A stretch of DNA of 61,619 bases. Origin: Acidobacteriota bacterium (GTDB lineage Bacteria > Acidobacteriota > Blastocatellia > Pyrinomonadales > Pyrinomonadaceae). Location: positions 1 to 61,619 of the forward strand of contig RFGC01000028.1 of assembly GCA_003697135.1 (NCBI GenBank), read 5' to 3'. Positions 9,767-14,047 of the stretch are shown here, one piece after another; within the stretch, counting starts at the first letter, position 1, and each line of letters opens with the position of its first letter. A model generated the notes under the pieces. The model was not told where the DNA came from. It made no database searches and saw only the letters and a program-made list of their open reading frames with translations. The position numbers were made by a program, and so were the translations under genes.

Positions 9767-12700
9767 TCATAAATTAAAATATCTCGCCTCAGGGTGATGC
9801 ACGATTATTGCTGACGTTGATTGTTCAGGGTCTAGTTGAAATTCCTCTGTAAGCTCAACGCCTATTCTCTCAGGCTCGAGAAGTTCAAAGATTTTCTGTT
9901 GGTCTTCTAAGTTCGGACACGCAGGATAGCCGAAACTATAACGTGCGCCACGATAGCCTTGCTTGAAAAGCTTTTCTATTTCATCGGCGTCCATATCGGC
10001 GATTCCTAGCTCCTCGCGTATTCGCTTATGCCAATACTCTGCCAGCGCCTCCGTAGCTTCCACAGAAAGCCCATGAAACAAAAGATATTCCGTATATGCC
10101 CCAGAAGCGAATAGCTTCGCTGAATGCTCTGAAGCCTTGCGTCCCATCGTAACTAACTGAAAAGCCACAACGTCCATCTTGCCACTTTCTCGTGGCGCAA
10201 AATAATCTGCGATACAGAGATTCTGGCTTCCTCTCATTTCAGCAGGCTGACGCGGAAACGTAAACCTCAACCACTCCGTCTTTTCATCATCGCGATAAAT
10301 TATCAAATCGTTTCCTTCCGATTGACACGGAAAATAACCATATACGACTTTCGCCTCAAGTAGCTTCTCCCTGATTGCCTGTGCCTTTAGCTCTCTGAAC
10401 TTCGGATAAACTTCCCTTTGCAAAATCTCTTCATACTCTTCCTTTGAGCGCCTTCCCTGCTTGTATTGCCACTGCCCTTTGAAAAGCGCCGTTGTGTTGA
10501 TGTATTCAAAAACCTTATTCAAATCTTTGATTTCGACAATTTTTGAACCGTAGAAAGGCGGTTTCGGAATCGGCACGTCCATTGAAACGTTCGATCGCAA
10601 CGTATGCTCGGTTCCATCGGGCAAACGGAATTTAGCTGATAAATTCGCAGAGCGCGAGATCGTAGATTTTTTTATCTTTCCGCAACTACCGAAGCTTTCT
10701 TGCGCTCCGTTAGACGTCGAAATTTTCGCCTCACGTTCATCAGTTGTTTTATCCGCAGTTTGAGAAATTGCTTCCTCAATCTGTTTTTGCTCTGTTTGCT
10801 GTTCATTCTTCAAAGCATTCGACTCTGAATCATCGAGTTGCTCGGACTTTTCTGAACTTGCACCTGTTATCAAATCCATTGCGCGGAGTCCGTCGAAGGC
10901 ATCACGAGCATAAAAAAGCTTTCCCTTGTAAAGCGGGATAAGTTCTTCCTCAACATACTTTCTGTTCAAAGCGGCACCACCCAAAATAACCGGGACCGTG
11001 ATACCACGCTCATTCATGATTTCGAGATTATCGCGCATAATCAAGGTTGATTTAACCAAAAGCCCGCTCATGCCGATTGCATCAGCTTTGTGTTCTTCGT
11101 AGGCTTTGAGTATCTCTTCGATAGGCTGTTTGATTCCCAAGTTAATAACCTTGTAGCCGTTGTTTGTCAAAATAATGTCAACGAGATTTTTACCGATGTC
11201 ATGGACATCGCCTTTGACGGTTGCCAAAACCATAATACCTTTCTGCACGCCTTCAACTTTTTCCATGAAAGGCTCCAGAAACTTAACGGCCGCTTTCATC
11301 ACTTCTGCTGACTGAAGCACAAACGGAAGTTGCATCTTCCCTGCGCCGAAAAGATCGCCTACCGTTTTCATTCCGTCTAGCAGAATCTCGTTGATAATCT
11401 CCAGCGCCGAGTATTTCTCCAATGCCTTTTTCAGATTTTCTTCAAGCCCGATTTTCTCACCGTCAATTATGTGACGTTTTAGTTTTTCTTCTATCGTCAA
11501 TCCCGAAGTATCGGGCTTCATTGCCTTTGCCGTCTTGCCTTCAAAGAGCTTAGTAAATTCGGCAAGCGGATCGTAAACGCAGATTTCGCCTTCAAACTTG
11601 CGTCTGTCGTATATCAAATCGAGAGCAACTTCAATCTCATGCTCACTGAAACGGCTCAAAGGCAAGATTTTTGAAGCGTTAACGATGGCAGAATTCATTC
11701 CTGCTTGCACGCATTCATGAAGAAAAACAGAATTTAAGACGATGCGCGCCGCGGGACTCAAGCCAAAAGAAATGTTTGAAACGCCCAAAATTATATTCGC
11801 ATCAGGCATCTCGCCGTGGATTAGCCTTATCGCCTCGATTGTCTCTACCGCATTGCGTCGGTCTTCTTCAATTCCTGTAGAAATCGGCAAGGCTAGTGGA
11901 TCGAAAAAGATGTCGTGCGGTTTTATGCCGTATTCGACTGCCTGCTTGTAGGCACGACGAGCGATTTGCAACTTTTTATCTGCTGTTCGTGCCATGCCTT
12001 CTTCGTCAATCGTTCCGATTACGACAGCCGCACCATAAGTTTTCGCAAGCTCTAAAACCTTGAAAAATCTCGGCTCGCCGTCTTCATAATTCGTAGAATT
12101 CAAAATGCACTTCCCGCCCGCAAGTTTCAGACCTGCTTCCATCTTTTGCCAATCTGTTGAATCCAGCATCAGCGGGATTTTGACATTTGTAACTAGGCGC
12201 GAAACAAGCTCGCGCATATCTCGAACTCCATCACGCCCGACAAAATCAACGTTGACGTCGAGAACATGCGCACCTTCGCGCTCTTGCTCTTTTGCGAGTT
12301 GAACCAATCCGTCCCAGTTCTCTTCCTGCAAAAGCTCGCGCATCTTCTTCGAGCCTGAAGCATTCACTCTTTCCCCGACAATCAGAAATGAATTGTCTTG
12401 AACGTAAGGCTGTGAAATGTAGATTGAAGAAGCAGACGGCGTAAATTTGACAGTGCGCGGCTTTGGCGAAAGTCTCTGCATTTTCTCAACAACTAGCCTT
12501 AAGTGAGCAGGTGTCGTCCCACAACAACCGCCGACAATGTTAGCGCCGAAGTCGCGTGCGAAGTGTTCGATCTTACGGGCAAAATCTTCAGGAGTTTCAG
12601 GATAAAATTGCTTTCCGTCTTTCACTTCAGGAAGCCCTGCATTCGGCAAAACCGAAACCGGAAAAGGCGAATTTTCACACAGATACTTAATGTTTTCCGT

Positions 12701-13393
12701 CATCTGATCAGGACCGGTTCCGCAATTCATGCCGATAACATCAATCGGGAAAGGTTCAAGCGTGGTCAAAGCGGCGCTTATTTCTGTTCCATTCAGCATT
12801 GTGCCGAAAGGTTCTATTGTTACTTGCACGATTACAGGGATTCGCTTACGCTCCTGCTCGAAGAATTCAAATATAGCCGCTAGTGCCGCTTTTGTCTGAA
12901 GAATATCTTGGCAGGTTTCGACGATATACATATCAACTCCGCCATCAAAAAGCCCGCGCACCTGATCTCGATAGGCATTTTTCAAGTCGTCGTATGAAAT
13001 ATGCCCAAGTGTGGGAAGTTTCGTTCCCGGCCCAATCGAACCTGCCACAAAACGCGGGTGCGATTTAGTCGAAAAATCACTTGCAAGTCTCTTTGCAAGC
13101 TCTGCCGCTCTTTTGTTTATGTCGTAAGCTTTGTCTGCTATTCCGTATTCGCCCAAAACAACTCCGTTTGCGCCGAAAGTATTTGTTTCTATAACATCGC
13201 AACCAACTTCCAAAAATCCAAGATGGACTTTCTCGATGGCTTCAGGTTTCGTATAGATAAGATTTTCAGAGCAGTTCTCGAATTGCGCTCCGCCCCAATC
13301 TTCCAAAGAGAGATTTTGCGATTGGAGATTGCTTCCCATCGCACCATCGAAAACTACAATTTTTTCATTCAAAAGCTTTAGAAAGTCACTCAT
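9767..13393 (-). CDS. metH: Cobalamin-dependent methionine synthase
   Basis: A 1208-residue enzyme that transfers the methyl group of methyltetrahydrofolate to homocysteine. Domains in order: homocysteine-binding (1-310) with zinc cysteines Cys224 and GGCC (290-291); pterin-binding (about 330-600); cobalamin cap and Rossmann domain (about 630-840) with DVHDIG (His731 is the cobalt ligand); and the SAM-dependent reactivation domain (about 925-1208) with [14 protein letters not shown] low-complexity Glu/Gln/Ser-rich insert at about 846-915 joins the last two domains. The ATG at 13393 has only a weak ribosome-binding site. Its leader contains a SAM-II riboswitch and terminator, so expression should fall when SAM is plentiful. 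Confidence 0.97.
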
Positions 13394-13410: not shown

Positions 13411-13436
13411 AAAAAAATTAGCGCCAAACAGGCGCT
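13411..13436 (-). terminator. Riboswitch-controlled intrinsic terminator in the metH leader
   Basis: Read on the minus strand: AGCGCC-TGTTT-GGCGCT, a perfect 6-bp GC-rich stem, followed by AATTTTTTT. It lies between the SAM-II aptamer and the metH start codon. The left stem and loop (GCGCCTGTTT, 13426-13435) can instead pair with AAACAGCCGC at the 3' edge of the aptamer (13457-13466; nine of ten pairs), which would form a competing antiterminator. Confidence 0.8.
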
Positions 13437-13461
13437 TTGCAGTTTTTAATGCTTTTGCGGC

Positions 13462-13510
13462 TGTTTAGCGACTTCTTTAACGTGGCTGCAAGTCGCCATA
13501 AATCACCACG
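13462..13510 (-). ncRNA. SAM-II riboswitch aptamer
   Basis: On the minus strand an H-type pseudoknot is readable. P1 is CGTGG (13506-13510) with CCACG (about 13482-13486). Loop 1 is TGATTTAT. P2 is GCGACTT with AAGTCGC (13468-13474). The conserved linker text TTGCAG and TTAAAG is present, and the 3' end is GCTAAACA. This order and the TGATTT, TTGCA and GCTAAA boxes match the SAM-II (SAM-alpha) riboswitch, which binds S-adenosylmethionine and usually sits before methionine genes. Here it precedes metH and is followed by a terminator about 25 nt downstream. Confidence 0.85.
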
Positions 13511-13518
13511 TATAAATA

Positions 13519-13548
13519 ATTGAATCATTCCCCGTCCAGCAATGTCAA
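13519..13548 (-). promoter_or_regulatory. Candidate metH promoter
   Basis: On the minus strand a consensus -35 TTGACA (13543-13548) is followed after 18 bp by TTCAAT (13519-13524), a weak -10. Transcription would begin within a few bases of the first stem of the SAM-II aptamer, which is what a minimal riboswitch leader needs. Confidence 0.5.
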
Positions 13549-13633: not shown

Positions 13634-14047
13634 TCAATATTTCGGCATGCTCTTATCAACTTCATCCGCCCATGCGAGGATTCCGCCTTTGAGATTTACC
13701 AATCTGCCCTCGTAGCCGTGTTTTTTGAGTTCTTCTATAGCTTTGGCGCTTCTGCCACCACTTCTGCAATAGACAAAAGCAACTCTGAGAGGATCGAGTT
13801 CGTTCATTCGCTTCGTAATCTCCCCAAGCGGAATTAGCTTAGAATTCGGGATTCGAGCTATCTCGTATTCATAAGGTTCTCGAACATCAATTATTTGAAT
13901 TTCGGGATCGTATTGCATTAGCTGATTGAGCTCCGTAGCTGTAATTTCTTCCAAGGCTTTGTCCTCCTTTGCATCATCTTGTCTGAAACTACAAGTTCCC
14001 ATCGAAAGTAAGAATAACGCCAGCATCAGCAACAAACTTTTCTCCAT
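13634..14047 (-). CDS. Rhodanese-domain exported protein or lipoprotein
   Basis: A 137-residue single-domain rhodanese (sulfurtransferase). A hydrophobic N-terminus ends near Cys19 (SMGTC), which may be a lipobox although Thr before the Cys is unusual. The rhodanese core runs IDVREPYEYEIARIPNSKLIP to the active-site loop VYCRSGGRS (Cys94) and ends GGILAWADEV. A GGTGGAAG ribosome-binding site precedes the ATG. It probably carries persulfide sulfur in the periplasm. It stands alone, with metH downstream under its own promoter. Other rhodanese domains occur in the sulfide operon at 38-41 kb. Confidence 0.85.
   Translation of the reverse strand: MEKSLLLMLALFLLSMGTCSFRQDDAKEDKALEEITATELNQLMQYDPEIQIIDVREPYEYEIARIPNSKLIPLGEITKRMNELDPLRVAFVYCRSGGRSAKAIEELKKHGYEGRLVNLKGGILAWADEVDKSMPKY

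What the first reader, a model, noticed from the sequence alone, without database searches (positions are those of the whole stretch)
13411..13548. SAM-II riboswitch with terminator and antiterminator controlling metH
The leader holds a full SAM-II pseudoknot, and 25 nt later a perfect terminator. AAACAGCCGC at the aptamer 3' edge can pair with GCGCCTGTTT of the terminator in nine of ten positions, giving a simple model: SAM bound, terminator forms, metH off. SAM-II is best known from Alphaproteobacteria and is often described as acting with little expression platform, so a clean transcriptional platform in this lineage deserves attention.
Basis: partly seen in the sequence, partly recalled or inferred. 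Interest (0 to 1): 0.7.

Follow-up and report, generated by a model that had tools for sequence, protein, structure and literature searches.

The report
SAM-II riboswitch terminator controlling metH
The stretch before the methionine synthase gene of this acidobacterium is a genuine SAM-II riboswitch that most likely shuts the gene off by forming a transcription terminator when the methyl donor SAM is plentiful; this is a known kind of switch, here with unusually clean comparative support in a phylum where we found no description of it.

Summary
The minus strand at 13519-13445 scores 53.6 bits with Rfam SAM-II (gathering 36, E 2.9e-9). The downstream gene is a complete metH. An intrinsic terminator lies at 13436-13420, followed by seven U. 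The antiterminator is longer than reported: GCUAAACAGCCGC (13469-13457) pairs with GCGCCUGUUUGGC (13435-13423) at 12 of 13 positions. It takes over almost the whole 3' strand of the SAM-II P2 pseudoknot, so aptamer and antiterminator exclude each other. A TTGACA-18-TTCAAT promoter sits just upstream.

The genome is an acidobacterium near Pyrinomonadaceae. Among 84 acidobacterial SAM-II leaders, 94% carry a strong terminator (15% of shuffles) and 64% carry a strong antiterminator duplex (4% of unrelated terminators). Leaders with a changed aptamer edge tend to carry matching changes in the terminator (p about 0.002, not corrected for kinship).

This is a new member of a known kind. What is added is that the tail is shared by P2 and antiterminator with compensatory changes, across a phylum for which our literature search found no SAM-II description. 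SAM binding and SAM-dependent termination are inferred, not shown.

The parts
13543..13548 (-). -35 box TTGACA of the leader promoter
   Evidence: Perfect hexamer. TTGACA with a 16-19 nt spacer and a -10-like box scores at least 10 of 12 in 67% of 89 SAM-II leaders against 0.9% of shuffles
13519..13524 (-). -10-like box TTCAAT, 18 nt from the -35; start site predicted at about 13513-13511
   Evidence: TTCAAT recurs at the same place before many metH-linked aptamers of relatives; TATAAG before HMT-domain genes. Start site inferred
13506..13511 (-). P1 5' strand ACGUGG
   Evidence: Rfam RF00521 alignment; coordinates
13480..13485 (-). P1 3' strand CCACGU
13488..13497 (-). P2 loop strand GGCGACUUGC
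   Evidence: Pairs 23-42, 22-43, 21-45, 20-46 are canonical in 83-84 of 84 acidobacterial leaders; 16-50 in 79 and 15-51 in 77
13459..13469 (-). P2 3' strand GCUAAACAGCC, shared with the antiterminator
13445..13519 (-). SAM-II aptamer, Rfam RF00521 SAM_alpha
   Evidence: 53.6 bits, E 2.9e-9
13457..13469 (-). antiterminator 5' strand GCUAAACAGCCGC
   Evidence: 12 of 13 pairs with 13435-13423, duplex -17.8 kcal/mol
13423..13435 (-). antiterminator 3' strand GCGCCUGUUUGGC, inside the terminator hairpin
13420..13436 (-). terminator hairpin AGCGCC-UGUUU-GGCGCU
   Evidence: 6 bp, 5 of them G-C; 4 of 500 shuffles as stable; equivalent hairpin in relatives
13411..13417 (-). U7 tract of the terminator
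   Evidence: sequence
9767..13393 (-). metH, cobalamin-dependent methionine synthase, 1208 aa, all four modules
   Evidence: NCBIfam TIGR02082 1409.9 bits (cut-off 1010.85); Pfam S-methyl_trans, Pterin_bind, B12-binding, Met_synt_B12

Best explanation
A SAM-II riboswitch that represses metH by transcription attenuation. RNA polymerase starts just before P1. When SAM is low, the tail GCUAAACAGCCGC, the 3' strand of P2, is free when the terminator's 5' arm and loop emerge and pairs with GCGCCUGUUUGGC. This antiterminator blocks the terminator stem and metH is read through. When SAM is high, SAM locks P1/P2, the tail is buried in P2, the hairpin AGCGCC-UGUUU-GGCGCU forms and transcription stops at the U tract before the metH start codon. 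Shown here: aptamer, terminator, mutually exclusive pairing, conservation and compensatory change in relatives, gene identity. Inferred: SAM binding, order of folding, SAM-dependent termination.
For: Rfam hit far above gathering. P2 pairs kept in 77-84 of 84 acidobacterial leaders. Terminator hairpin of -15 kcal/mol or better in 94% of leaders against 15% of shuffles. Antiterminator duplex of -12 or better in 64% of leaders against 4% for unrelated terminators, window in effect 0 of 691. Matched changes where the aptamer edge differs: AAAGAGC with GCUCUUU (L140), GCUAAAGAG with CUCUUUGGC (L171), GCUAAAGCGG with CCGUUUUGGC (L155); permutation p 5e-5 over all leaders, p 0.002 for the 17 with a variant edge. 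With P1 formed, the antiterminator state of the window RNA (-31.2) beats the terminator state (-24.4) by 6.8 kcal/mol, so without P2/SAM readthrough is favoured. In a nascent state with about 62% of the hairpin made, 63 of 77 acidobacterial leaders put at least 7 antiterminator pairs in the P1-constrained best fold; after completion only 13 do, consistent with a cotranscriptional decision. Downstream genes are methionine-related: metH 33, homocysteine methyltransferase-domain genes 33, also PLP sulfhydrylase-like genes, metK and threonine synthase.
Against: No ligand-binding or transcription data. ViennaRNA cannot score pseudoknots, so the SAM-bound state has no computed energy. A nested alternative fold that breaks P1 and contains the terminator is 0.3 kcal/mol better than the antiterminator fold (-31.5 against -31.2), helped by a genus-specific 7 bp helix, so equilibrium folding alone does not force readthrough without SAM. 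About a third of relatives' leaders have weaker antiterminator duplexes, and some variant leaders (L129, L139, L160, L172) show no better match to their own terminator than to others. The leaders are related, so the permutation values are optimistic.
Confidence: 0.88

Rival explanations
1. SAM-II acting on translation by direct occlusion: SAM binding buries the ribosome-binding site in P2, as in the Sargasso Sea metX riboswitch.
For: The best-studied SAM-II RNA works this way (PMC10907184; PMC5352136).
Against: The P2 tail here is AAACAGCCGC, with no purine-rich SD, and the metH AUG (13393) lies 66 nt beyond position 13459, after the terminator. In S. meliloti an SD inside the riboswitch can act 74 nt away, but there a GAGG is present.
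Confidence: 0.04
2. The aptamer is real but the terminator is a constitutive attenuator, not coupled to SAM, as suggested for S. meliloti metA.
For: In S. meliloti metA a terminator downstream of SAM-II was not predicted to depend on SAM. In the window the terminator fold can also form in a nested alternative structure.
Against: The terminator's 5' arm and loop are complementary to the P2 strand in a way not seen in unrelated terminators and change together with it in relatives.
Confidence: 0.07
3. A degenerate SAM-II remnant that no longer binds SAM.
For: This genome is smaller than most of its relatives' and its second homocysteine methyltransferase gene (G000 C19) has no SAM-II motif upstream, unlike in relatives, so the regulon has shrunk.
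Against: Highest SAM-II score of all leaders found in relatives (53.6 bits), all core P2 pairs intact, promoter and platform intact.
Confidence: 0.01

Closest known systems
SAM-II (metA, SAM_alpha, RF00521) riboswitches with intrinsic terminators, Alphaproteobacteria (Corbino 2005, PMC1273637)
   Same: Promoter a few nt before P1, P1 plus P2 pseudoknot, terminator between P2 and the ORF, methionine-pathway gene downstream, predicted OFF switch
   Different: Phylum Acidobacteriota; tail CAGC in place of the consensus gAGG; G-C rather than C-G at P2 pair 15-51; metH as target
S. meliloti metZ SAM-II riboswitch (PMC9373788)
   Same: Transcriptional platform: SAM-bound state predicted to form a Rho-independent terminator; terminated RNA of about 100 nt observed
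   Different: Different gene and lineage; no in vitro termination result was found in the passages read; no antiterminator covariation reported there
Sargasso Sea metX SAM-II aptamer (PDB 2QWY)
   Same: Same aptamer fold; P2 3' strand GCUAAA plus tail is the sequestered element
   Different: There the tail carries the Shine-Dalgarno sequence (translation); here the tail is the antiterminator strand (transcription)
Tandem SAM-II riboswitches (PMC9481103)
   Same: Other families of this class carry two SAM-II aptamer-terminator units in a row (G038, G041, G042)
   Different: The window has a single unit

Membership tests
SAM-II riboswitch (RF00521) | Covariance-model score above the curated gathering score | tested here: met
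   53.6 bits against 36, E 2.9e-9, full model length
SAM-II riboswitch (RF00521) | P1 stem | tested here: met
   ACGUGG 13511-13506 with CCACGU 13485-13480, 6 bp
SAM-II riboswitch (RF00521) | H-type pseudoknot P2 between the P1 loop and the 3' tail | tested here: met
   Window pairs 23-42, 22-43, 21-45, 20-46, 16-50, 15-51, 14-52 all Watson-Crick; conserved in relatives
SAM-II riboswitch (RF00521) | Conserved core letters GUGAUUU, CUUGC, UUAAA, GCUAAA | tested here: met
   All present in the Rfam alignment
SAM-II riboswitch (RF00521) | Located before a methionine/SAM pathway gene | tested here: met
   Complete metH, TIGR02082 1409.9 bits
SAM-II riboswitch (RF00521) | Binds SAM and discriminates against SAH | not testable with these tools
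   Needs in-line probing or equilibrium dialysis
Transcription-terminating riboswitch platform | Intrinsic terminator between aptamer and ORF | tested here: met
   13436-13420 plus U7; 4 of 500 shuffles as stable
Transcription-terminating riboswitch platform | Antiterminator that excludes both the terminator and the ligand-bound aptamer | tested here: met
   12 of 13 pairs; uses the P2 3' strand and the terminator's 5' arm, loop and first 3 nt of the 3' arm
Transcription-terminating riboswitch platform | Ligand-dependent termination | not testable with these tools
   Needs single-round transcription with and without SAM
Translational (direct-occlusion) SAM-II | Shine-Dalgarno sequence inside the P2 tail, next to the start codon | tested here: not met
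   Tail AAACAGCCGC has no SD; AUG is 66 nt beyond position 13459

The most novel reading that the evidence does not exclude
Acidobacterial SAM-II RNAs form a lineage-wide transcriptional variant in which the P2 3' strand (GCUAAACAGC) doubles as the antiterminator strand under a two-partner constraint, so the aptamer's own tail, including the change from gAGG to CAGC, is shaped by pairing with the terminator. In the window's genus an extra helix (GCGACUU/AAGUCGC) adds a third competing state.
Probability: 0.3. Interest if true: 0.4.

Novelty: new member of a known kind. Interest (0 to 1): 0.27.

Why it matters
The mechanism is a known kind. The value is as a clean model: SAM-II is structurally one of the best-studied riboswitches but almost always as a translational switch, while terminator-linked SAM-II, though predicted to be common, has little direct biochemistry. 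Here the same 10-13 nt are contested by ligand pseudoknot and antiterminator, with compensatory changes in relatives, so the mechanism can be tested with point mutants. It also adds Acidobacteriota (49 of 60 near relatives, 16 of 119 genomes sampled across the phylum) to the distribution of SAM-II as far as the held literature shows.

Tried and rejected
Translational occlusion: no SD in the tail, start codon far downstream. The obvious 7 bp helix GCGACUU/AAGUCGC as P2: complete only in this genus (2 of 89 leaders), so not the conserved pseudoknot. My first terminator finder, which weighted U runs, picked wrong hairpins in several relatives and was replaced by energy-based ones; a few mis-set aptamer edges were corrected by hand. 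One relative hit (L173) was dropped: no conserved edge, and its surroundings read like coding sequence. Five alphaproteobacterial leaders are too few to test the antiterminator there: one shows it clearly (L181, AAAGGCC with GGCCUUU), the others weakly.

Full report
Identity. The window's minus strand at 13519-13445 matches Rfam RF00521 (SAM-II) at 53.6 bits, E 2.9e-9, gathering 36, over the full model. It is the only Rfam match in the window and the only SAM-II in the genome. The gene that follows, 9767-13393 on the minus strand, is metH: TIGR02082 1409.9 bits, with all catalytic and activation modules in Pfam. MetH relatives are Pyrinomonadaceae and other Acidobacteriota (up to 79% identity; Pyrinomonas methylaliphatogenes 67%), so the genome is an acidobacterium near Pyrinomonadaceae; its exact name is not given.

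Anatomy. Promoter TTGACA (13548-13543), 18 nt, TTCAAT (13524-13519); P1 13511-13506/13485-13480; P2 loop strand GGCGACUUGC 13497-13488 and 3' strand GCUAAACAGCC 13469-13459; antiterminator strands 13469-13457 and 13435-13423; terminator 13436-13420; U7 13417-13411; AUG 13393.

Is it more than chance? Terminator: 4 of 500 shuffles of the window leader give as stable a hairpin-plus-U-tract; the generic consensus scan alone would not be convincing (1 found, 0.6 expected). Antiterminator: against 693 unrelated terminator-like hairpins only two pair as strongly with the window's tail, and inspection shows both are antisense strands of SAM-II leaders, one of them the window's own. Promoter: 67% of 89 leaders score at least 10 of 12 against 0.9% of shuffles.

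Comparative evidence. SAM-II was found in 49 of 60 near relatives and 16 of 119 genomes sampled over the phylum. From these I extracted 84 acidobacterial leaders plus 5 alphaproteobacterial ones. A terminator of -15 kcal/mol or better follows the aptamer in 94%, against 15% of shuffles. The best duplex between the aptamer tail and the terminator is -12 or better in 64%, against 4% with unrelated terminators. The commonest form is GCUAAACAGC with GUUGUUUAGC or GUUGUUUGGC, 10 of 10 pairs. Where the tail differs, the terminator often differs to match: AAAGAGC with GCUCUUU (L140), GCUAAAGAG with CUCUUUGGC (L171, in Pyrinomonas, whose other two leaders have CAGC tails), GCUAAAGCGG with CCGUUUUGGC (L155, another class). 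Permuting terminators among leaders gives p 5e-5 overall and p 0.002 among the 17 leaders with a variant tail. These values ignore kinship and are therefore optimistic, and several variant leaders do not show the effect.

P2. Numbering by the 2QWY crystal RNA (from my knowledge of that sequence; searches confirm that P2 holds the 3' tail and that C16 lies in P2a), the pairs 23-42, 22-43, 21-45, 20-46 are canonical in 83-84 of 84 leaders, 16-50 in 79 and 15-51 in 77. The tail used by P2 is the tail used by the antiterminator. This strand sharing is the core of the switch.

Energetics. With P1 formed, the window's antiterminator fold is -31.2 and the terminator fold -24.4 kcal/mol at 37 C; the order is kept at 50 and 65 C. 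P2 plus SAM would have to supply about 7 kcal/mol; pseudoknot and ligand energies were not computed. An alternative nested fold that opens P1 and contains the terminator is about equal (-31.5), owing to the genus-specific helix 13496-13490/13474-13468. In relatives the complete terminator is usually more stable than the antiterminator, but in a nascent RNA with about 62% of the hairpin made, 63 of 77 P1-constrained folds contain at least 7 antiterminator pairs, against 13 of 77 at full length. This fits a decision made during transcription.

Comparison with what is known. [quoted passage not shown] The S. meliloti metZ SAM-II is predicted to work this way, with a roughly 100-nt terminated RNA seen. 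Tandem SAM-II/SAM-V and tandem SAM-II arrays with terminators are described. So the kind is known. SAM-II in Acidobacteriota did not come up in the held literature; this is an absence in an open-access library, not proof of novelty.

Verdict. Observation confirmed; interpretation right in mechanism, too generous in novelty. New member of a known kind.

Noticed in passing
L146/L157/L168 (G038), L148/L161/L169 (G042), L140 (G041), possibly L139 (G049): Tandem SAM-II aptamers, each followed by its own terminator-like hairpin, in other families of the class. In G038 and G042 (and probably G049) a threonine synthase-like gene (CRECG N-terminus) follows; the family name was tested on the single-unit homologue L147 (thrC TIGR00260, just over cut-off). 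Threonine synthase is a branch-point enzyme and not an obvious SAM-repressed target.
   Followed up: partly
window 13496-13490 with 13474-13468 (minus strand): A 7 bp helix GCGACUU/AAGUCGC, complete only in this genome and its genus mate (G001). It competes with canonical P2 and could create a third folding state.
   Followed up: partly
G000 C19:14784-15602 (L186, L187): The genome's second homocysteine methyltransferase-domain gene has no SAM-II motif upstream, whereas about 33 relatives' leaders with SAM-II precede such a gene; apparently the riboswitch was lost here.
   Followed up: partly
SAM-II leaders of relatives (table): The -10 box tends to be TTCAAT before metH-linked aptamers and TATAAG before HMT-domain-linked ones, both 17-18 nt from TTGACA: two paralogous promoter-riboswitch units kept apart across the family.
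   Followed up: partly
L152 (G102): In another acidobacterial class, SAM-II precedes a metK-like gene (SAM synthetase), with what looks like a second aptamer (AACAACTTGCGGGGCG...CCGCTAAAGCG) between the first terminator and the gene.
   Followed up: no
window 13634-14047 (minus strand): The gene upstream of the metH leader encodes a 137-aa single rhodanese-domain protein with a lipoprotein-like N-terminus, same strand, separated by the leader promoter.
   Followed up: partly
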